Below, piece by piece: positions 1,504 to 59,908 of a stretch of DNA of 64,000 bases. How positions within the stretch are numbered: position 1 is the first letter of the stretch; the number at the start of each line of letters is the position of its first letter. The notes under the pieces were generated by a model. It made no database searches, was not told the DNA's origin, and saw only the letters and a program-made list of their open reading frames with translations. A program made the translations under genes and the position numbers. Origin of the DNA: an uncultured Helicobacteraceae bacterium (GTDB lineage Bacteria; Campylobacterota; Campylobacteria; Campylobacterales; Helicobacteraceae); NCBI GenBank assembly GCA_947588965.1, contig CANQAN010000006.1:1-64000 (forward strand), in the 5' to 3' direction.

Positions 1504-3882
1504 ATGGAAACCATCTTTAACCCCATAAAAGAATATTTCAAAGAAGTCGTTCCTCTCGGAAATTTGCACATTTTGGAGTTGAAAGAATCAAGCGAGATTC
1601 TAGCGATATTCTTAAGTCTTGACAGCAAGAATTTCAATGAATTTTGGCAGAGTGAAACCCTGCAAAAACTCTGTGAAAAATACTGCAAAACATTGAGTTT
1701 TAAGGGGATCTTGCAGGTTCAATACACATTGCTTTTAAATATCCAAAAATCTTTCCTAAGTACCCCTAAGGAGATGCAAAATCTCCTAGAAAAAACACTA
1801 GAAAATCTAGAGATTCTTAAGCAAAACAATCTCGCACAAAACACTTCTTTGCCTCTTTTTGAATCCTATTTTCGCAATCTCCTTGCACGAGAGGTTGAAG
1901 AGAATCAACCAGCCACACAGGATTCCACTCCAAAATCAAAGACACAAGAACTCATTCAAGCGCTTCTTAGGGATTTCTTAGGGGAATCTCTCAAGCAGCT
2001 TCACGCGCACAAAGAATCTCTAGCGGGAGTTTTGCAGCATTTTAAGCATTTAGAACCACTCATGTTGCGTCTTGATTCCCTTTTGCAAAAGGCACAGACA
2101 CAGCACTTTTCTATCGGAATTACGGGCGTTTTGAGTTCAGGGAAAAGCACCCTGCTTAACGCTCTGCTTGGAGAGGAGATTCTAGGGAGTTCTAACATAC
2201 CCGAAACAGCGAATTTGACACTTTTAAAATATGCAAAAACTCCGAGTGCGCAAATTTTCTTTTGGAATAAACAAGAATGGGAGGACTTAGCATCCACAAT
2301 GGAGGAATCCACACTCAATGTGCTGTTAAGAAATGAAGAGTTTTGTGCGATCTTGCAAGAAAAGGTGCAGGATTCTACACAAAGCCTAACGATTCGGCTA
2401 GAAGAGCTGCCCAAATACACCTCGGCCAATCACCCAAGTAAGATTTGCAATCTCATTAAAGAGACGATTCTTTTCACCCCCCTAGAATTCCTAGAAAACA
2501 ATGTAGAAATCGTGGATACGCCCGGACTTGATGATCCCGTCATTCAGCGCGAGGAGGTTACAAGGGGCTATCTTGCAAAATGTGATTTGCTCATTCATGC
2601 CATGAATGCCGCACAAAGCGCAACGCAAATTGATATGGAATTCATTTTACAAGCCTTGCAAAATGCCAATTTGTCAAGAATTTTGATTCTGCTAACCCAT
2701 GCCGATCTGCTAGAAGAGAAGGACTTGCAATCCGCTCTTGCCTATGCCAAAGAGAGCATTAAGGCAAACTTCGCAAACCACCTTTCTAGCACGGATGCAA
2801 ACTTGCTCTTTAGACGTTTAGACTTCATTCCCATTGCCAGCTATCCCGCACTTTTATGCAAGACTAATCCGACAAAGGCCAAGGAGCTAGGATACAGCCT
2901 AGAGGATTCCAACTTTGATGCGCTCATTGCGTATCTGCAAAGGACACTCTTAGGCAGCAACAGCACAAAGGCAAAGGATCTCATTTATCTCTGTGCGCAA
3001 GGATTCAGACGCGTGTTTGAGGAGATTCAATCTGCTATCGCATTAGAGAAAAGTCTCTTATTCGCACAAGAAGAGGAGATCTTGCAACACATTCAGAGGG
3101 CTAAGGAAGAAAGCCTACAGAGCCGACAGAAGCTAGAAAGCGCAAAAACTTCTTTGGAATCAACAAAGACACAATTACAAGAATATCTTAACACTCTGCA
3201 AAAGCAAATCCAACACAAACTCCAAGATGCGCAAAATCTCCTCAATGAAAGAATCTTTGAGGACATTATCTATGAATATGAGCACAATAAGATTCCCACA
3301 CAAGAACGTCTAGAATATCTTTTGGATTTGAGCCTTAAGGATATTTTGAGCGATATTTTGCGCTTTTGTGCGCAAAGCTTGAGTAAGAAAATCGCGCAAC
3401 TGCAAGAGCAATTTACAGAGCATTTGCATGAACTCAAAGAGGGGGTCGCACTGCAGGGATTCAATCTCTACTTCAATCCCACACTTTTACAAAAGACAAA
3501 GTTAAAGATTCTGCACAAAATTGTAAAATCTGCACAAAGTTTCAACAAAAATCACACGCATGAGTTAAAGAATGCACTAGAGTTAGATTTCAAGGAGAGT
3601 TTATCGGAGTTTGTCGCGATGCTCTTGCAGGAGAGTCATAACCTAGAATCTAAGCTCATTTTGAACTTTCAGGACATTTTGGATTCCATTCAAACGCAAC
3701 TGCAAGATCATTTGCGTTCAAAAGAACAATCCCTACAAAATGCTCTAGAGAGCCTCTCTATCAGCACAGAGGAAAAGAGAGAGAGGGAAAAGGTCTTTTT
3801 AGAATGCGAGAGAATTTTAGGATTAGGACTAGAATCCTTCAAACAATTGCAACACCAAGCAACAGGAGGGCAAGATGCTTAA
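1504..3882 (+). CDS. bacterial dynamin-like GTPase, first of a pair
   Basis: A 792-residue protein with a dynamin-type GTPase domain in its middle. Visible motifs are the P-loop GVLSSGKST (about residue 208), G3 VDTPGLDD (about 336) and G4 THAD (about 398). An N-terminal helical region of about 180 residues precedes it, and a long Gln/Glu/Leu-rich helical stalk follows from about 510 to the end. Such proteins bind and remodel membranes on GTP hydrolysis. The gene overlaps the second dynamin gene by 8 nt, as in the tandem Campylobacter jejuni pair Cj0411/Cj0412, whose products form a hetero-oligomer. Pairing with the next gene product is inferred from that. ATG directly follows the MFS stop codon, with AAGGAG just upstream. 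Confidence 0.9.
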   Translation: METIFNPIKEYFKEVVPLGNLHILELKESSEILAIFLSLDSKNFNEFWQSETLQKLCEKYCKTLSFKGILQVQYTLLLNIQKSFLSTPKEMQNLLEKTLENLEILKQNNLAQNTSLPLFESYFRNLLAREVEENQPATQDSTPKSKTQELIQALLRDFLGESLKQLHAHKESLAGVLQHFKHLEPLMLRLDSLLQKAQTQHFSIGITGVLSSGKSTLLNALLGEEILGSSNIPETANLTLLKYAKTPSAQIFFWNKQEWEDLASTMEESTLNVLLRNEEFCAILQEKVQDSTQSLTIRLEELPKYTSANHPSKICNLIKETILFTPLEFLENNVEIVDTPGLDDPVIQREEVTRGYLAKCDLLIHAMNAAQSATQIDMEFILQALQNANLSRILILLTHADLLEEKDLQSALAYAKESIKANFANHLSSTDANLLFRRLDFIPIASYPALLCKTNPTKAKELGYSLEDSNFDALIAYLQRTLLGSNSTKAKDLIYLCAQGFRRVFEEIQSAIALEKSLLFAQEEEILQHIQRAKEESLQSRQKLESAKTSLESTKTQLQEYLNTLQKQIQHKLQDAQNLLNERIFEDIIYEYEHNKIPTQERLEYLLDLSLKDILSDILRFCAQSLSKKIAQLQEQFTEHLHELKEGVALQGFNLYFNPTLLQKTKLKILHKIVKSAQSFNKNHTHELKNALELDFKESLSEFVAMLLQESHNLESKLILNFQDILDSIQTQLQDHLRSKEQSLQNALESLSISTEEKREREKVFLECERILGLGLESFKQLQHQATGGQDA

Positions 3883-37805: not shown

Positions 37806-37820
37806 AAAAAAAAAAAAAAA
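37806..37820. repeat. A15 homopolymer upstream of the chemoreceptor gene
   Basis: Fifteen consecutive A, 33 nt upstream of a TACAAT box. It lies about 45-60 nt before the expected transcription start, where tract length could alter promoter strength. Confidence 0.85.
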
Positions 37821-51656: not shown

Positions 51657-52829
51657 ATGTCAAACACTCTTTTTATGGGAGACATTCCCTTAGGGAAGTT
51701 GTTCTTTTTGCGTCTTGAAAATGCATTTTTGCTTGCACAATGTGAAGAAGTGATTGAGATTGTCAGTGATTATGAATATTTGGAAAAAGATCTCATCTCT
51801 TGGTGTGCATATAGGGGCGAGAGGTTTTTACAAAAGCTGCCACTCAAGCATTGTTATAGTTACACCCTTAAAAAGCAATCACACAATCGCTTTGATAGAT
51901 TGCAACAAAATGAGATTCTGCCCATAGCACCGGAGATTATGGGGCTGTCTGCAGGAGGGTCTGTGGGAGAATCCGCAAGTCCGCAGTATCATTTCGCGCT
52001 CAATCACAAAGATGAAATTTGGAGCGAAAACATTCAAAAACTCTATGAGGATTCTAAAAATGCGCAATGGAACGCGTCTGTAGAGATTGATTGGAATGCG
52101 ATTCCACAATACAATCCGCATTTAGAGTTTGCGCTCGCACAGATTATGACCTATTTGGTTGAAAATGAATTTTCTGCCCTCTATATCCCTGCGCAATTCA
52201 TTCCGCAAATTGCGCCCTATTATACAGAAGTTCCCTTATTACTCTCTAGCATTATAGGCGATGAAGCGCGACATATTGAGGTGTTTATCAAACGCGCAAA
52301 AGCCACGGGGCTTGGATTGCAATACTCCACACGTACGACACAGCAGAGCCTTTGGACACTCTTTAGAGAGCAGAATTATTTTGTCTCAAGCTTTCTTTTG
52401 CATGTCATGGGAGAGGGGACTTTCGTGGATTTATTGCATTTTTTAGAGGACTTTATTATGGATGCGCCGACAAAAAAACTCTTATCCCTTGCAAGAAAAG
52501 ATGAAATGCGACATGTGTCCTATGGAATGCAACATATAAAACAAGGAATCTCTCTGCATCCACAAAAGATTCAAGTCCTAAAAGAAGCTGTTTTGAAACG
52601 CAAGAATTATTTAGATGAATTAAGCGGGGAATCCACTCTGCTCCTAGAATCCTTAGCCGTTGTCGCGGGGGGAGGAGGTGAGCCTTATGAGATCAAAAGA
52701 GGATTTGAGGCTTTGGAACAATTGAAAATCAAAATGGAAAAAAACCGCACAAAAAGACTTGTAGAATGCGGGATTGACGAGGAATTAGCAAGAGATTTAA
52801 GCAAGGCACACACGCCAAATTTTATGTAG
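51657..52829 (+). CDS. TusA-like / ferritin-like diiron fusion protein
   Basis: 390 residues, cytosolic. Residues about 1-60 look like a TusA-type domain that has lost the CPxP cysteine (MGDIPLGKLFFLRL in its place) but keeps the second half (VIEIVSDYEYLEKDLISWCAYRGERFL). From about 150 a four-helix ferritin-like region follows, with carboxylate/His motifs EFALAQIMTYLVENE, IIGDEARHIEVF (about 203) and ARKDEMRHVSYG (about 281). ExxH twice plus helix glutamates is the diiron pattern. It leads a three-gene cluster with a flavoprotein and a binding-protein fold. Function unknown; an oxidase or oxygenase is plausible. Confidence 0.75.
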   Translation: MSNTLFMGDIPLGKLFFLRLENAFLLAQCEEVIEIVSDYEYLEKDLISWCAYRGERFLQKLPLKHCYSYTLKKQSHNRFDRLQQNEILPIAPEIMGLSAGGSVGESASPQYHFALNHKDEIWSENIQKLYEDSKNAQWNASVEIDWNAIPQYNPHLEFALAQIMTYLVENEFSALYIPAQFIPQIAPYYTEVPLLLSSIIGDEARHIEVFIKRAKATGLGLQYSTRTTQQSLWTLFREQNYFVSSFLLHVMGEGTFVDLLHFLEDFIMDAPTKKLLSLARKDEMRHVSYGMQHIKQGISLHPQKIQVLKEAVLKRKNYLDELSGESTLLLESLAVVAGGGGEPYEIKRGFEALEQLKIKMEKNRTKRLVECGIDEELARDLSKAHTPNFM

Positions 52830-52862
52830 CATAAGAAATTTTTGGAGTGATTTGTATCAGTC

Positions 52863-52882
52863 CAAAGGTTTTTGAACCTTTG
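52863..52882 (+). terminator. hairpin between the diiron gene and the flavoprotein gene
   Basis: CAAAGGTT (52863-52870) and AACCTTTG (52875-52882) form a perfect 8-bp stem with a TTTG loop. No T-tract follows. It may reduce read-through or mark RNA processing inside the cluster (92-nt gap). Confidence 0.45.
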
Positions 52883-52921
52883 CAATCCGTGCGATTGACA
52901 GACATTTTTAAAGGAGCTTAA

Positions 52922-54046
52922 ATGCTAGCAAAAGATAATGTTTTATCATACACAAAAGATTTTGGAGAGAGAAATGTGCGCCCTCACACAAAGCGCATAG
53001 ATGCAGAGGGCATATTCCCTAAAGAAGCCTATAATGCCTTGCGCAAAGAGGGTTATATGGGACTTCTGATTCCGAAAGAATATGGGGGCTTAGGTGGCGG
53101 AAATTTGGAGCATACACAAGCTTGTGCTACGCTTGGAGAGTTTTGTGCGACAACGGCGCTGTGTTATATGATGCACAATACTTCGGCTGTTTGTATCAGT
53201 GCATTTGGTAGTGAAGCCTTGAAAAAAGAATTTTTGCCCAAAATCGCAAAAGGTGAAATCGCCCTTGCCTTAGCCTTTAGTGAAAGTGGATCGGGGACGC
53301 ATTTCAATGCGCCCGATATTTATGAGAGAGAAGAGGGGGGATTGAGAATCCTAAAGGGTAGAAAGAGCTTCGTCACCTCTGCGCAAAATGCGGATTATTA
53401 TCTCACCTATACGAATTCTTGTAATAAAGAGGGGGCAAAAAATATTTGGCTTGTACATAGGGACTCTAAGAATCTTGTCCATGAGGAAAATGTGTGGAAT
53501 GGTCTTGGAATGCGTGGAAATGCTTCAAAGCCTGTGCAATATAACGATGTGTCCTTAGAGGAAAAATACAGAATCGGAAATGAGGGGGACGGAGAGGCGG
53601 CTGCGGGAGTTGTTCTTATGTATTTTGTGGTGGGGCTTGCAGCGGTGTATAGCGGACTTGGAAAAGCAGCCTATGACTGCGCTCTCTCGCACACAAAGTC
53701 ACGTCAATACACAGATGGCAAGAGTTTGAGTGATATAGAGTTGGTCAAAATTCATCTTGCAGAACTCTATGCGAAAGTACAAAGCTCTATTGCGCTCACT
53801 TATGATGCTGCAAGGAGTTTTGATACGCAAGAAAAAGACAATGCCACGAAGATTTTTGCCTCACGTATTAATGCGACACACAATGTCATGGAGATTTGCT
53901 CACTTGCTATGCGTCTTGGTGGGGGTAAGGCTTACAGCAAACTCTTGCCATTAGAGCGTTATTTGCGCGATGCATTTGCTTCGCAAGTGATGGCGCCAAG
54001 CCTTGATGTGCTTAAGGTATGGCTTGGTGATGCGATTGTTCAATGA
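52922..54046 (+). CDS. acyl-CoA-dehydrogenase-fold flavoprotein, atypical
   Basis: 374 residues of the acyl-CoA dehydrogenase family: GLLIPKEYGGLGGGNLEHTQ, LALAFSESGSGTHFN (FAD contact), RKSFVTSAQNADYYLTY, GLGMRGNASKPVQY and a C-terminal AMRLGGGKAYSKLLPLERYLRDAFASQV. After the RDA segment, where classical enzymes have IYEGT with the catalytic glutamate, this protein has VMAPSLDVLKVWLG. It thus resembles flavin monooxygenase or other non-dehydrogenase members (inference). AAGGAG before the ATG. The next gene starts 11 nt after it. Confidence 0.85.
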   Translation: MLAKDNVLSYTKDFGERNVRPHTKRIDAEGIFPKEAYNALRKEGYMGLLIPKEYGGLGGGNLEHTQACATLGEFCATTALCYMMHNTSAVCISAFGSEALKKEFLPKIAKGEIALALAFSESGSGTHFNAPDIYEREEGGLRILKGRKSFVTSAQNADYYLTYTNSCNKEGAKNIWLVHRDSKNLVHEENVWNGLGMRGNASKPVQYNDVSLEEKYRIGNEGDGEAAAGVVLMYFVVGLAAVYSGLGKAAYDCALSHTKSRQYTDGKSLSDIELVKIHLAELYAKVQSSIALTYDAARSFDTQEKDNATKIFASRINATHNVMEICSLAMRLGGGKAYSKLLPLERYLRDAFASQVMAPSLDVLKVWLGDAIVQ

Positions 54047-54056
54047 GGGAAAAACT

Positions 54057-54941
54057 ATGAAAACGATACTTTTAGGTGCTGTGGCTTATGATGCGAAAGT
54101 CGTTCCGATTTGGGATATTATACGCGATTATTCTAATGCTAAGGGATGCAAGCTTGATTATGTACTTTTTAGCAATTATGAAAGGCAAGTGGATGCTTTG
54201 CTAAAAGGGCATATTGACATTGCTTGGAATACAAATGTTGCGTGGATTAGGACACTCTATGCGACAAACAATCAAGCAAAAGCCCTTGTCATGCGCGATA
54301 CAGACATAGATTTCACCACGAAATTTGTCACGAAAAAGGGCAGTGGAATCAAAACATTGTCCGATTTACGTGCAAAAAGATTCGGACTTGGCAGTATGGA
54401 TTCTGCACAAGCTGCGATTATGGGGCTGTATTATTTACAGCATGAATCTTTAGATGTGCAATTGCAAGAGTTTAATTCTCCCGATGAATGTGGTCGTGGC
54501 AGAAGTGATGAGAATCGCACGAATCTTGCCCTCATACGTCACAATAGTGATGTAGGGAAGCATGGAGACACAGGCAGGAGTGAATTTGATATTTTGGATT
54601 CTATCAAAAGAGGAGTGCTTGATGCGGGAAGTATCGGCTCAAGCACGTGGATAAGAATCTTGCAAGAGGGCAGTTATCCCGATATTGAGAGCTTTTGGAC
54701 AAGTCCGGGCTATTGTCATTGTAATTTTTCTGTGATGCCAGATTTTGACACAAAACTTGCAGAATCTTTCACGCAAATGTTGCTCAGCCAAAACACACAA
54801 AAAGACAATCCTATCATTGCAAAAATGATGCAAATGGAGGGACTCAATCAATGGGTCGTCGTTGGCGAAAAAGAGCTTAGAGGCTATGATGTGCTTTATC
54901 AAGCCATGCGTGAGCAAAATCTCCTAGACAACACACTTTAA
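54057..54941 (+). CDS. PhnD-like binding-protein fold, no signal peptide
   Basis: 294 residues from ATG 54057, with GAGGG 7 nt upstream; earlier in-frame ATGs lie inside the preceding gene. It resembles the PhnD/transferrin-fold (type 2 periplasmic binding) family: VDALLKGHIDIAWNTNVAW, IKTLSDLRAKRFGLGSMDSAQAAIMG and AGSIGSSTWIRIL. But it starts MKTILLGAVAYDAKVV, has no signal peptide or lipobox, and no permease or ATPase gene is near. An Arg/Asp-rich insert (CGRGRSDENRTN) and a CHC motif (GYCHCNF, about residue 219) are unusual. It may be an enzyme or sensor, not a transporter subunit. Confidence 0.78.
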   Translation: MKTILLGAVAYDAKVVPIWDIIRDYSNAKGCKLDYVLFSNYERQVDALLKGHIDIAWNTNVAWIRTLYATNNQAKALVMRDTDIDFTTKFVTKKGSGIKTLSDLRAKRFGLGSMDSAQAAIMGLYYLQHESLDVQLQEFNSPDECGRGRSDENRTNLALIRHNSDVGKHGDTGRSEFDILDSIKRGVLDAGSIGSSTWIRILQEGSYPDIESFWTSPGYCHCNFSVMPDFDTKLAESFTQMLLSQNTQKDNPIIAKMMQMEGLNQWVVVGEKELRGYDVLYQAMREQNLLDNTL

Positions 54942-55010: not shown

Positions 55011-55019
55011 TGGTATAAT
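55011..55019 (+). promoter_or_regulatory. extended -10 promoter of the restriction-modification gene
   Basis: TGGTATAAT (TGnTATAAT) ends 43 nt before the chosen ATG at 55063. Confidence 0.7.
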
Positions 55020-55062
55020 TGCAATTTATTTTCTATTTTATTTTCTTGCAATGAGGTCATTT

Positions 55063-58000
55063 ATGAGTGAAAGTATCGATGAAAAAATACGCAATATCTT
55101 TAAAGAGGCAAGCAACAACAGAGAAAAAGGGACGCTATTTGAAAAACTCTCAAAACATCTCTTAAAAAAATGGGACACAGCAGGCAACTACAAGGAGATT
55201 TTTCTTTGGAATAAATGGGATAAGAGAGACGGAGCGGATCGCGGGATAGATCTCGTCATAGAGACAAGAGAGGGCAAATATATCGCTGTCCAATGCAAAG
55301 CCTATGGGGACTCAAAAGTGAGCCACAAGGATTTGTCTCCTTATTTTACTCAACTTCAAAGTGGCGTTGGAGATATTGAGTTTAGCGAGGGAATCATCAT
55401 AACAACAAGCGATTTCACAGACAATGCAGAGAAAGATATAGAGCAAATCTCAAAGAAGATTCCCATCTCAAAAATCACGCAAGAAGAGTTTAGAAATTCG
55501 GACATTGATTGGGAGGAATTAGAAAAAATCAAATTTCAAAAGTCCCTAGAATTGCCCATTAAGGATAAGAAAAGACTAAGAGAGCACCAAGAAAAAGCCT
55601 TAAAAGAAACAGAAGACTATTTTAGAGATTCCAACAATACAAGGGGCAAACTCATAATGGCTTGTGGGACGGGCAAGACTTTCACTTCTTTGAGGATTTT
55701 AGAGCGTATCACAGAGCAAAATTCCATTGTTTTGTTTCTGGCTCCAAGCATTGCTTTGGTCGCGCAGACCTTTAGAGAGTATTACAGAGAGAGGAATGAT
55801 GATTTCTATGCTTGTATCGTCTGCTCTGATAATCAAGCGGGAAATTTAAAAGCGGGAAATTTAGAAGATGACATAAAGATCGCAGAATTGCCAAAAACTC
55901 CATCAACAAAGATTGAAGACATTGGAGCCGTCTATAAACAAGCGCAAAATGCCCACAAGCGACTGATTATATTTTCTACTTATCAGAGTGCAAGGAGGAT
56001 CAAAGAGGCTCAAGAAGCGCATTATTTAGGTACGATTGATTTGATGATCTGTGATGAAGCGCACAGAACTGTGGGGATCTCAGAAAAAGATAAGGACAAG
56101 GAATTCACACTCTGCCATAGTGATACAAATATAAGAGCTAATAAAAGAATCTATATGAGCGCGACACCCCTAATCTTCAATGATAGGACAAAAAACAGGG
56201 CTTCAGAAAATGAATGCGCGGTCTTTTCTATGGATGATCCCGAGATTTTTGGGAAGGAAATTTATAAACTAAGCTTTAGTGAAGCCATAGAAAAGAAGTT
56301 GCTGACAGATTATAAAGTCATCATTCTTGCAATCAAGCAAGAAGCCTTTGTAAGTATCACCAATAAGGTCATCGTTAAATTAAAAACAGAGGAAAATTGC
56401 AAGGATGACGAAAAGGAAAAGCTTTTCGATCTTAATTTCGTGTGTAAAATCATAGGAATGCATAAGGGCTTAGCAAGAAAGGATCTTATGGCACTGAATG
56501 AACAAGGACTGCCCGATAATGACTTCCTCAATGAACTTGATAAGAATCAATCCAAAAGAGTGATTAATTTCTGCAGAAGCATAAAGGCGAGTAAGCATAT
56601 TATTAAGTCTTTTAAAACCATTATGGAATGCTATGATGAGGAATTAAAACAAAATTCCTTTGCTGATCTTAAGATCGAGTCTGACCATGTAGATGGCGCA
56701 ATGGATTCGGGGGAGAGATTAAAGCGCATTAGCAAACTTGAAGCGCCAGAGAAAGATCATGTTTGCAGACTCCTAAGCAATGCACGTTGCCTCAATGAGG
56801 GCGTGGATATTCCTGCTTTGGATACGGTGGTGTTTTTTGATGCGAAGCAGTCCATGATAGATATTGTCCAATCTGTAGGCAGGGTCATGAGGAGGGCAGA
56901 GGGCAAAAAGATAGGTTATATCATACTTCCTCTAGCCTTGAGTGAAAGTGAGCTGCGCGACGTCAATGAAGCATTAAAAAATACGAATTTCAACAACACT
57001 TGGAGGGTGTTGCAAGCCCTAAGGAGTCATGATGACAGATTGCTTGATGAGAGATGCTTAAGGGACAATATCAAAATATGTGCAGTGGGAGATAATAAAA
57101 AAGAAAAGCTAAACCCAAAAGACGATAAACAAGAACAAAATAAACCCCGCCAAGAGACGATGGATTTCCCCACTGTCGCCTTAAAAGAACTTGCCGATGC
57201 GATGTATAATGTCATGCCCACAAAGCTAGGCGATAAGGGATATTGGCAGAATTTCACCGCAAAAACGGCCAAAATTGTAGAGAGGCTCAATGCGCGACTT
57301 GACGCGATTTTCAGAGAACATCCCGAAATTTTAAAGGAATTCCACAATGCATTAAAAGAAAATATTCACCCCTATGTCAGAGAGGATGAGGCTGTGGATA
57401 TGATATGCTCTCACATCATCACCAAGCCCATTTTTGATGTCTTGTTTGATAAAGAAATGGACAACAATCCCATAAGTAAGGCTCTCAATGAAGTGAGTAC
57501 GAGGCTCAATACATTCGGATTGGATAACGAAGAGACCAAATCTCTAAGCGCCCTCTACTCAAGCGTAGAGGAAAATGCCAAAAAGGCAAGGAGTGAAAAG
57601 AATAAGCAAGAGCTCATTAAGAATCTCTATGACACCTTCTTCAGAGCTGCCTTTAAAAAACAGGCTCAAAGGCTGGGCATCGTCTATACGCCCATAGAAG
57701 TGGTGGATTTCATACTCCATTCTATCAATGAACTTCTAAAAAAACATTTCAATACAGATTTTAATGACAAAGAGGTGAAAATTTTTGATCCTTTTATGGG
57801 GACGGGGAGCTTTATCACAAGGCTCTTAAGCAAAGAAAATAATCTCATAAGACTTGAATGTCTCAAAGACAAAATAGAGCACGGAATCTTCGCTCAAGAC
57901 ATCATCCTCCTTGCCTATTATATCGCTCTTATTAATATTACTCAAACAGCTCAAACAAGGCTTGGAGAATCCGTGCAGTTTAAAAAGATTGCATTGGGCG

Positions 58001-58344
58001 ATAGTTTGGATTATAAAGATAAAAATAAAGATAAACCAATGCAACCTGCATTTTCACAGCTATCCTATTTAAGCTTAAAAGAAAACAAAGACATTCAAGA
58101 TCTCATAGGGCATGAGAAGATCAAAGTCATCTTAGGCAATCCCCCCTATTCAGCTGGATCAAAAAGTGAAAATGACAATAATGCCAACCTCTCCCATCCT
58201 TTTGTGGAGGAGCGTGTTAAAGAAACCTATCCCACCACAGCGCAAAGCGCCAAAAACACTCGTGACACCTTGATACAATCCATACGTATGGCAAGTGACA
58301 GATTGATTGGCGGGGGGGGGGGGCATTATAGGCTTTGTAGCTAA
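55063..58344 (+). CDS. single-chain restriction-modification enzyme (type ISP-like), 5' part, frameshifted at G12
   Basis: 1093 residues from ATG 55063 (GAGG 7 nt upstream; an ATG 4 codons earlier is possible). Order of domains: a PD-(D/E)xK nuclease of Mrr type (GIDLVIETREGKYIAVQCKAY, about 62-82); superfamily 2 helicase with Walker A MACGTGKT (about 200), DEAH (about 329), SATP (about 365) and QSVGRVMRR (about 602); N6-adenine methyltransferase with DPFMGTGSF (about 908) and NPPYSAG (about 1025). The frame then enters G12 (58312-58323) and stops seven codons later. The target recognition part continues in another frame from 58325. At G11 the whole gene would encode about 1614 residues. In this sequence it is OFF or truncated. 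Confidence 0.93.
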   Translation: MSESIDEKIRNIFKEASNNREKGTLFEKLSKHLLKKWDTAGNYKEIFLWNKWDKRDGADRGIDLVIETREGKYIAVQCKAYGDSKVSHKDLSPYFTQLQSGVGDIEFSEGIIITTSDFTDNAEKDIEQISKKIPISKITQEEFRNSDIDWEELEKIKFQKSLELPIKDKKRLREHQEKALKETEDYFRDSNNTRGKLIMACGTGKTFTSLRILERITEQNSIVLFLAPSIALVAQTFREYYRERNDDFYACIVCSDNQAGNLKAGNLEDDIKIAELPKTPSTKIEDIGAVYKQAQNAHKRLIIFSTYQSARRIKEAQEAHYLGTIDLMICDEAHRTVGISEKDKDKEFTLCHSDTNIRANKRIYMSATPLIFNDRTKNRASENECAVFSMDDPEIFGKEIYKLSFSEAIEKKLLTDYKVIILAIKQEAFVSITNKVIVKLKTEENCKDDEKEKLFDLNFVCKIIGMHKGLARKDLMALNEQGLPDNDFLNELDKNQSKRVINFCRSIKASKHIIKSFKTIMECYDEELKQNSFADLKIESDHVDGAMDSGERLKRISKLEAPEKDHVCRLLSNARCLNEGVDIPALDTVVFFDAKQSMIDIVQSVGRVMRRAEGKKIGYIILPLALSESELRDVNEALKNTNFNNTWRVLQALRSHDDRLLDERCLRDNIKICAVGDNKKEKLNPKDDKQEQNKPRQETMDFPTVALKELADAMYNVMPTKLGDKGYWQNFTAKTAKIVERLNARLDAIFREHPEILKEFHNALKENIHPYVREDEAVDMICSHIITKPIFDVLFDKEMDNNPISKALNEVSTRLNTFGLDNEETKSLSALYSSVEENAKKARSEKNKQELIKNLYDTFFRAAFKKQAQRLGIVYTPIEVVDFILHSINELLKKHFNTDFNDKEVKIFDPFMGTGSFITRLLSKENNLIRLECLKDKIEHGIFAQDIILLAYYIALINITQTAQTRLGESVQFKKIALGDSLDYKDKNKDKPMQPAFSQLSYLSLKENKDIQDLIGHEKIKVILGNPPYSAGSKSENDNNANLSHPFVEERVKETYPTTAQSAKNTRDTLIQSIRMASDRLIGGGGGHYRLCS

Positions 58345-59908
58345 TGGCAACTTCATTGATGCAGTCTCCGCAGATGGCTTTAGAAAATGTGTCGCACAAG
58401 AGTTTGATCACATTTACATCCTCAATCTTAGGGGTGATATAAGATCCCAAATGCAGAAAACAAAAGAGGGTGAGGGTGAAAATATCTTTAATGCAATGAT
58501 CGGGATTGCTGTTGTGTTTTTTGTCATGTGTGAATCGCACAGCAATGATACTCAACAAAAAGCTCAAATCCACTATTATGACATTGGTGATTATCTGGAT
58601 AGAGAGACAAAGCTCCAAAGACTCATAGATTTTAAACATGTACTCAGACTCCCACTCCTGCCCATAGTGCCTAATCAAAAGGGAGATTGGATTAACCAAA
58701 GAGGAGAGGACTTTGACAAGCTCCTCCCGCTTAAAGCAGACAAAGGCAATAAGCGCCAAGAAAGCATTTTTATTATAAATTCTTGCGGAGTAGCGACAAA
58801 TCGCGATGCTTGGGTCTATAACTTTTCCAAAGAAAATCTAAAAGCATCCATGCAAACTTGCATCCGCACCTATAATGAAAACTTAGCAAACTTCAATGTC
58901 AGAGCCTTCAGAGAAAGGCACAGCGGAGTCAAAAAGGATCTCTACAAACAACTAGATGATAGGGATATTACTATTGATGAGAGCAAGATTGCATGGAGCA
59001 GAGCCTTAAAAAATAAATTCATAAAAAGTGAAAAATGCACGGACTTGAATGAAAACAACATAAGAATCTGCGCCTACCGCCCTTTCACAAAGGAATATTT
59101 ATATTGGGATAAGACTTGGAATGAAATGCAATATCAAATGCCAAGATTATTTCCTAAGGATTCTTGTGAGAATATACTCCTTAATACAACTTCAAAAAAT
59201 CTTGGTTTTTCTGCCCTCATGTCCAAAGAACTATCCGATCTCCATCTTATGAGCGGCGCAACCCAAGCCTTCCCTCTCTACTATTATGAAAATGGTTGTA
59301 AAGAATGTGCAATCAGCAATTCTGCGCTAGAAACATTTAGAGTAGAACTCAAAGATAAAAGCCTAAGCAAAGAGGATATTTTCTATTATATCTATGCGAT
59401 ATTTCATCATAAAATGTATTTGGCTAAATACAAATTTGAACTCTCAAAGGAATCCCCAAGAGTTGCCATAAGTGCAGACTTTAGAGCATTGAGTACTTTA
59501 GGGCTTGAGCTTGCAAGATTGCATTTAGATTATGAATCTGTTGAGATGTTTGATACCGTTGAATACGAAAGTCTGTTTGCAGAGAAAGAGAATGATGAAT
59601 TCTATCGTGTGGTCAAAATGAAAAAGGGCAAGACGGAAAAAGGGGATAATATTATCATTTATAATCCAAACATTACAATCAAAAATATCCCCGAGAAAGC
59701 CTATGAGTATAAAATCAATGGCAAGAGCGCGATTGATTGGGTGATTGAACGTTATCAAGTCAGTATTGATAAAAAGAGCCTCATTAAAAATGATCCCAAT
59801 GACTTTAGAGGATGCCGCTATGTTTTTGAGCTTCTTTTGCGCATTATTAATCTGTCGCTTAAAAGCGTGGATTTGATTGAAGAGATTAGCAAATTGAAAT
59901 TTGAGTGA
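58307..59908 (+). CDS. 3' part of the phase-variable restriction-modification enzyme (methyltransferase end and target recognition domain)
   Basis: Open frame that continues the split enzyme. The TTG at 58307 is only the formal start of the frame. Just after the G tract it reads IIGFVANGNFIDAVSADGFRKC, which in this family directly follows the NPPY part of the methyltransferase. Then ICAYRPFTKEYLYWDKTWNEMQYQMP, a conserved target-recognition segment of type ISP enzymes, and SAIDWVIERYQVSIDKKS near the end. Removing one G (or adding two) joins it in frame with the 5' part. It has no ribosome site or promoter of its own, so it is not an independent gene. Confidence 0.9.
   Translation: MAGGGGIIGFVANGNFIDAVSADGFRKCVAQEFDHIYILNLRGDIRSQMQKTKEGEGENIFNAMIGIAVVFFVMCESHSNDTQQKAQIHYYDIGDYLDRETKLQRLIDFKHVLRLPLLPIVPNQKGDWINQRGEDFDKLLPLKADKGNKRQESIFIINSCGVATNRDAWVYNFSKENLKASMQTCIRTYNENLANFNVRAFRERHSGVKKDLYKQLDDRDITIDESKIAWSRALKNKFIKSEKCTDLNENNIRICAYRPFTKEYLYWDKTWNEMQYQMPRLFPKDSCENILLNTTSKNLGFSALMSKELSDLHLMSGATQAFPLYYYENGCKECAISNSALETFRVELKDKSLSKEDIFYYIYAIFHHKMYLAKYKFELSKESPRVAISADFRALSTLGLELARLHLDYESVEMFDTVEYESLFAEKENDEFYRVVKMKKGKTEKGDNIIIYNPNITIKNIPEKAYEYKINGKSAIDWVIERYQVSIDKKSLIKNDPNDFRGCRYVFELLLRIINLSLKSVDLIEEISKLKFE
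58312..58323 (+). repeat. G12 phase-variation tract in the restriction-modification gene
   Basis: Twelve consecutive G at codon about 1084 of the joined gene, exactly where the two open frames meet. The joined length (59908-55063+1, minus one base) is divisible by three, so G11 gives a complete protein. Confidence 0.95.

What the first reader, a model, noticed from the sequence alone, without database searches (positions are those of the whole stretch)
58312..58323. Phase-variable single-chain restriction-modification enzyme caught in the OFF frame
A G12 tract splits an approximately 1614-residue nuclease-helicase-methyltransferase into two frames. The halves join perfectly at G11: the first ends at the NPPY region and the second starts with the next conserved methyltransferase segment and carries target recognition. 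A switch would turn both restriction and methylation on or off together, changing genome-wide methylation (a phasevarion) and phage defence.
Basis: partly seen in the sequence, partly recalled or inferred. Interest (0 to 1): 0.8.

Follow-up and report, generated by a model that had tools for sequence, protein, structure and literature searches.

The report
G-tract switch in Type ISP restriction enzyme
A Helicobacter-like bacterium carries a large all-in-one restriction enzyme gene interrupted by a slippery run of 12 G's that should turn it on and off, and related species have put similar slippery runs at different places in the same kind of gene, so this enzyme class appears to have become switchable several times.

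Summary
A G12 tract (58312-58323) splits an otherwise intact gene (55063-59908). At G11 it would encode one 1614-residue protein; at G12 it stops after 1093 residues. Both halves align end to end with LlaBIII and LlaGI, the solved Type ISP restriction-modification enzymes. All catalytic motifs are present, and the untranslated half shows the same codon-position constraint as the translated half, so this is not a decayed pseudogene.

The nearest homologues (about 62% identical, two other genera) are intact and lack the tract. Other Helicobacteraceae Type ISP genes carry long G or C tracts at different points: a helicase loop (six genes, three poly-G and three poly-C), a neighbouring loop, a linker, the MTase/TRD border, and inside the TRD. 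Some are in frame and some are out of frame. Across 24 genes, 11 have a tract of at least 9, against 3.7 expected (P about 3e-4, ignoring shared ancestry).

Best reading: a contingency locus that switches restriction and methylation together, recorded OFF if the assembly is right. Switching, methylation, phage effects and any phasevarion are inferred. Phase-variable Type I, III and IIG systems are known; I found no paper on repeat-driven switching of a Type ISP enzyme. New variant of a known kind.

The parts
55011..55019 (+). possible extended -10 element (TGGTATAAT) just upstream of the gene
   Evidence: read directly from the sequence; no matching -35, not listed by the promoter scan; unproven
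55053..55056 (+). probable ribosome-binding site GAGG before ATG 55063
   Evidence: sequence
55063..58344 (+). upstream frame as recorded: nuclease, helicase, coupler and first part of methyltransferase, 1093 aa, ends 21 bases after the tract
   Evidence: Pfam and LlaBIII match
55183..55527 (+). Mrr-family nuclease domain (D...QCK motif)
   Evidence: Pfam Mrr_cat_2 1e-23; motif
55570..56895 (+). superfamily 2 helicase-like motor (GTGKT, DEAH, SAT, QxxGRxxR)
   Evidence: Pfam ResIII 2.8e-24, Helicase_C 7e-14; motifs
57241..57600 (+). Type ISP coupler domain
   Evidence: Pfam PF22240 4.8e-27
57607..58185 (+). gamma-type N6-adenine methyltransferase, DPFMGTGSF and NPPY (58138-58149)
   Evidence: Pfam N6_Mtase 1e-9; motifs
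58312..58323 (+). G12 homopolymer tract, the proposed switch; codes for a glycine loop between SDRLI and IIGFV
   Evidence: alignment of homologues
58307..59908 (+). downstream frame (533 aa from the nearest upstream start codon, stop included): end of methyltransferase and target-recognition part
   Evidence: LlaGI 1.2e-99
58766..59809 (+). Type ISP C-terminal specificity (target-recognition) domain
   Evidence: Pfam PF18135 1.1e-92

Best explanation
A complete single-chain Type ISP restriction-modification enzyme whose gene is a contingency locus. Slipped-strand changes in a poly-G tract inside the methyltransferase domain move the gene between a full-length frame (restriction and modification both on) and truncated frames. 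A truncated protein lacks the target-recognition domain and the end of the methyltransferase, so it can neither find sites, methylate, nor start translocation and cleavage. As recorded (G12) the gene is OFF. Shown: gene anatomy, frame logic, homology over the full length, conservation of both halves, and recurrent tracts in related enzymes. Inferred: slippage in the population, loss of both activities when OFF, and the benefit (bet-hedging between phage defence and uptake of DNA, with genome methylation changing alongside).
For: Domain order and full-length match to LlaBIII (4xqk) and LlaGI (5ffj), with the halves meeting at residue 1078/1079; PADLOC profile PDLC03597 matched 4-1089 and 1092-1640. 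All nuclease, helicase and MTase motifs present. Of tract lengths 10 to 13 only one gives a full frame. Codon-position pattern of window-specific changes is the same in both halves (0.195/0.159/0.380 and 0.225/0.135/0.395 at positions 1/2/3), so the untranslated half is not decaying. Tracts of 9 or more lie in 11 of 24 Type ISP genes examined (3.7 expected, P 3e-4) at six different places in the protein. Four genes are in frame at the tract and seven out of frame. The genome is rich in such tracts (69 of 9 or more), as expected of a lineage using poly-G contingency loci.
Against: No reads or second isolate, so no length variation at this tract was seen. Long homopolymers are often miscounted in assemblies. 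The genus relatives held (18 genomes) have no Type ISP coupler gene, so the locus has no close orthologue with another tract length. H. pylori-group Type ISP genes have frameshifts outside repeats, so plain inactivation also occurs. The tract enrichment ignores shared ancestry of the seven tract-bearing genes of genera g4 and g5.
Confidence: 0.8

Rival explanations
1. Assembly or base-calling error: the true tract is in frame and the enzyme is on in the sequenced strain. The locus could still be phase-variable.
For: Draft genome of 21 contigs; long homopolymers are error-prone (general knowledge). Recorded lengths of all 69 tracts peak at 11.
Against: Cannot be tested without reads. It removes only 'caught OFF', not the tract or its place in the gene.
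Confidence: 0.25
2. A simple pseudogene: a horizontally acquired enzyme permanently inactivated by a frameshift, with the tract incidental.
For: No other genome of the genus has the gene. The window's branch is long (0.55, against about 0.1 for its two nearest relatives). H. pylori relatives carry non-repeat frameshifts (PMC3936762).
Against: No other stop or frameshift in 4.85 kb; both halves equally constrained; the frame break coincides with the only long G/C tract in 64 kb; tracts recur in related genes.
Confidence: 0.12
3. Leaky single state: RNA polymerase or ribosome slippage on the G run makes some full-length enzyme at any tract length, so the tract lowers dose rather than switching.
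For: Slippage on long homopolymers is a known effect (general knowledge).
Against: Nothing here measures it. A tract that only lowered dose would not need to vary in length; lengths from 10 to 17 in related genes suit a length switch better.
Confidence: 0.08

Closest known systems
Type ISP enzymes LlaBIII and LlaGI (Lactococcus)
   Same: Same domain order (Mrr nuclease, helicase-like motor, coupler, gamma-MTase, TRD) and whole-length similarity (E 1e-161 and 1e-97 for the two halves against LlaBIII).
   Different: Those are single uninterrupted proteins. Here a G12 tract splits the MTase.
H. pylori Type ISP HP0667-HP0668-HP0669 (M.HpyAXVIII) and JHP0612-0613
   Same: Same enzyme class in the same family; also frameshifted in the reference strains (PMC3936762).
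   Different: The frameshifts of HP0667-0669 are reported as not due to sequence repeats, and that of JHP0612-0613 as an authentic frameshift. Here the break is a long G tract.
Phase-variable Type IIG Cj0031c (C. jejuni) and HP1353-1354/JHP1272 (H. pylori)
   Same: Single-chain restriction plus methylation switched by a homopolymer tract; Cj0031 switching changes methylation, transcripts and phage restriction (PMC4889913; PMC3936762).
   Different: Type IIG enzymes lack the helicase-like motor. JHP1272 and HP1353-4 have a second tract that changes specificity.
Type III mod and Type I hsd phasevarions
   Same: Reversible switching of a methyltransferase (PMC13076061).
   Different: Restriction and modification are on separate subunits there; here one tract should switch both in one chain.

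Membership tests
Type ISP restriction-modification enzyme | Single chain with Mrr nuclease, helicase-like ATPase, coupler, MTase and C-terminal TRD, in that order | tested here: met
   Pfam hits in order; full-length match to LlaBIII/LlaGI, reading across the tract
Type ISP restriction-modification enzyme | Catalytic motifs intact (D...QxK, Walker A, DEAH, motif VI, MTase I and NPPY) | tested here: met
Type ISP restriction-modification enzyme | ATP-dependent translocation and cleavage between head-to-head sites; m6A at an asymmetric site | not testable with these tools
   needs biochemistry or a methylome
Simple-sequence-repeat phase-variable gene | Long mononucleotide tract inside the reading frame, one length in three giving a full frame | tested here: met
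Simple-sequence-repeat phase-variable gene | Tract length varies between cells or strains of the species | not testable with these tools
   one genome per species held, no reads
Simple-sequence-repeat phase-variable gene | Homologues found in both in-frame and out-of-frame states at a tract | tested here: met
   across species only: in frame in G069, G067, G080, G024; out of frame in G072, G075, G068, G078, G052, G105 and the window
Phasevarion | Switching of the MTase changes expression of several genes | not testable with these tools
   needs methylome and RNA-seq of the two states

The most novel reading that the evidence does not exclude
Type ISP enzymes of Helicobacteraceae have become phase-variable several times independently, and the position of the tract sets the output. 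In the helicase loop the motor and nuclease part would be cut from a possibly still expressed methyltransferase (restriction off, methylation perhaps on). In the methyltransferase (this window) everything is off. At the MTase/TRD border or inside the TRD, recognition is lost or altered. One enzyme class would then have evolved different kinds of switch by placing the tract differently.
Probability: 0.25. Interest if true: 0.65.

Novelty: new variant of a known kind. Interest (0 to 1): 0.5.

Why it matters
Repeat-driven phase variation is documented for Type I, III and IIG restriction-modification systems. A Type ISP enzyme puts nuclease, motor, methyltransferase and recognition in one chain, so a single slippage would switch the whole system. 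That raises the question of how a cell survives switching ON with an unmethylated chromosome. Tracts at several different sites in related genes suggest repeated selection for switchability and give natural material to test it.

Tried and rejected
Empty site: the left block (51657-54941) and right block (61302 onward) are conserved in genus relatives but at separate places, so the gene sits at a synteny break and no clean empty site could be defined. I considered that the tracts elsewhere in the genome with CAT after them are start-codon-adjacent C tracts of genes on the other strand; rejected, as the frames on that strand are short. In my first alignment the window's second half was read in the wrong frame; it was corrected and rerun, and only the rerun is used for window positions downstream of the tract. 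NCBIfam gave no match over its cut-off. Promoter and terminator scans were at background.

Full report
Observation. The G12 tract is at 58312-58323 exactly as stated. It is the only G or C run of nine or more in the window. The upstream frame (ATG 55063, preceded by GAGG at 55053-55056) ends at 58344 after 1093 codons. The downstream frame is open to 59908. Of tract lengths 10 to 13 only 11 gives an uninterrupted frame, of 1614 codons.

Identity. Half 1 carries Mrr_cat_2, ResIII, Helicase_C, ISP_coupler and N6_Mtase. Half 2 carries Type_ISP_C at E 1.1e-92. Against solved structures, half 1 aligns to LlaBIII residues 15-1079 (E 1.5e-161) and half 2 to 1078-1574 (E 2.1e-97); LlaGI gives the same picture. 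The PADLOC model PDLC03597 is matched at 4-1089 and 1092-1640. The nuclease D...QCK, GTGKT, DEAH, SAT, QxxGRxxR, DPFMGTGSF and NPPY motifs are all present. It is therefore a complete Type ISP enzyme interrupted once. The tract codes for a glycine loop between SDRLI and IIGFV; relatives have one or two glycines there, and H. pylori-group genes have G5 or G6 at the same codons, a plausible seed.

Not a decayed gene. The nearest homologues, G117 (another genus of the family) and G353 (another family of the order), are about 62% identical, intact and without a tract. Window-specific changes relative to this pair fall mostly at third codon positions, equally in both halves, so the half that is untranslated at G12 has been kept like the other. 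The gene is otherwise free of stops. Against this, the window's branch is long (0.55), and none of the other 18 genomes of the genus has an ISP coupler gene, so it was probably acquired horizontally; it lies at a synteny break.

Recurrence. I fetched the Type ISP genes found with the coupler model in the family, and most of those in the order, and mapped every tract. Tracts of nine or more lie within ten further genes. In window-protein coordinates they are near residue 296, in a variable helicase loop (six genes; G069, G067 and G075 with G; G072, G068 and G078 with C); near 265 (G080); near 966 (second tract of G072); at 1213-1214, the MTase/TRD border (G024, G052); and near 1409, inside the TRD (G105). 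The window tract is at 1084. A G run cannot become a C run by slippage, so even the helicase loop needs more than one origin. At the tracts, four genes are in frame and seven genes out of frame, counting the window. Using each genome's own density of tracts, 3.7 of 24 genes should have one and 11 do (Poisson-binomial P 3e-4). About eleven more H. pylori-group genes without tracts, left out of that count, would add little to the expectation, because the H. pylori-group genomes that were counted have few tracts. Shared ancestry within g4/g5 weakens the figure, so I treat it as supportive rather than decisive.

Mechanism. Shown: anatomy, frame logic, conservation, and recurrence across species. 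Inferred: slipped-strand mispairing changes the tract length; in-frame cells make the full enzyme, which restricts and methylates; out-of-frame cells make a protein lacking the TRD and the end of the MTase, and do neither. In H. pylori, HP0669, carrying the MTase and specificity parts alone, is an active methyltransferase when overexpressed in E. coli (PMC3936762). A tract upstream of the MTase, as in the helicase-loop genes, might therefore leave methylation on, while the window's tract should not. The benefit would be that part of a population resists phage while part stays permissive or differently methylated, as reported for the Type IIG enzyme Cj0031 (PMC4889913). None of this was measured here.

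Relation to the literature. Phase variation is described for Type I, III and IIG systems. In Campylobacter, nine phase-variable R-M groups are listed and 'ISP' does not occur in that paper (PMC6321876). In H. pylori the frameshifts of the Type ISP cluster HP0667-0669 are stated not to be due to repeats. Searches pairing 'type ISP' with phase-variation and repeat terms returned no paper that I could identify as describing a tract-switched Type ISP enzyme. I read only some of the papers returned, the library lacks most subscription journals, and REBASE could not be searched, so absence is weak evidence.

Verdict. Observation confirmed. New variant of a known kind; interest raised by the recurrent tracts.

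Noticed in passing
genome G000, 69 G tracts of 9 or more (loci L006, L098-L130; window 58312-58323): 57 of 69 long G tracts are preceded by C and 25 by CTGC (only 4 of 974 short G runs in the window are), often followed by CAT: TTCTGC-Gn-CAT in what appear to be unrelated genes and in all three reading phases. The motif is also common in other genomes of the genus (41 tracts in G007) and absent as its backwards control. Unexplained; the window's own tract is GGC-G12-CAT.
   Followed up: partly
L095 3061-6636 (G000:C11): A Type IIG enzyme gene of the same genome is in pieces: a G7 run at 3547-3553 lies where the N-terminal frame changes, and a second break lies between 6205 and 6280 near the C-terminus.
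   Followed up: partly
L096 3666-6878 (G000:C3): A second Type IIG enzyme gene with a Type_ISP_C domain, intact, one gene away from gyrB, without any tract.
   Followed up: no
L060 3119-3131 and 5241-5253 (sense orientation, genome G072): A Type ISP gene with two C13 tracts, both out of frame: one in the helicase loop, one in a linker before NPPY.
   Followed up: partly
L084 1552-1560 (sense orientation, genome G071): A G9 tract just upstream of an intact Type ISP gene, which might vary its transcription instead of its frame.
   Followed up: no
window 37806-37820: A15 run, the only other homopolymer longer than 8 listed in the window; context not examined.
   Followed up: no
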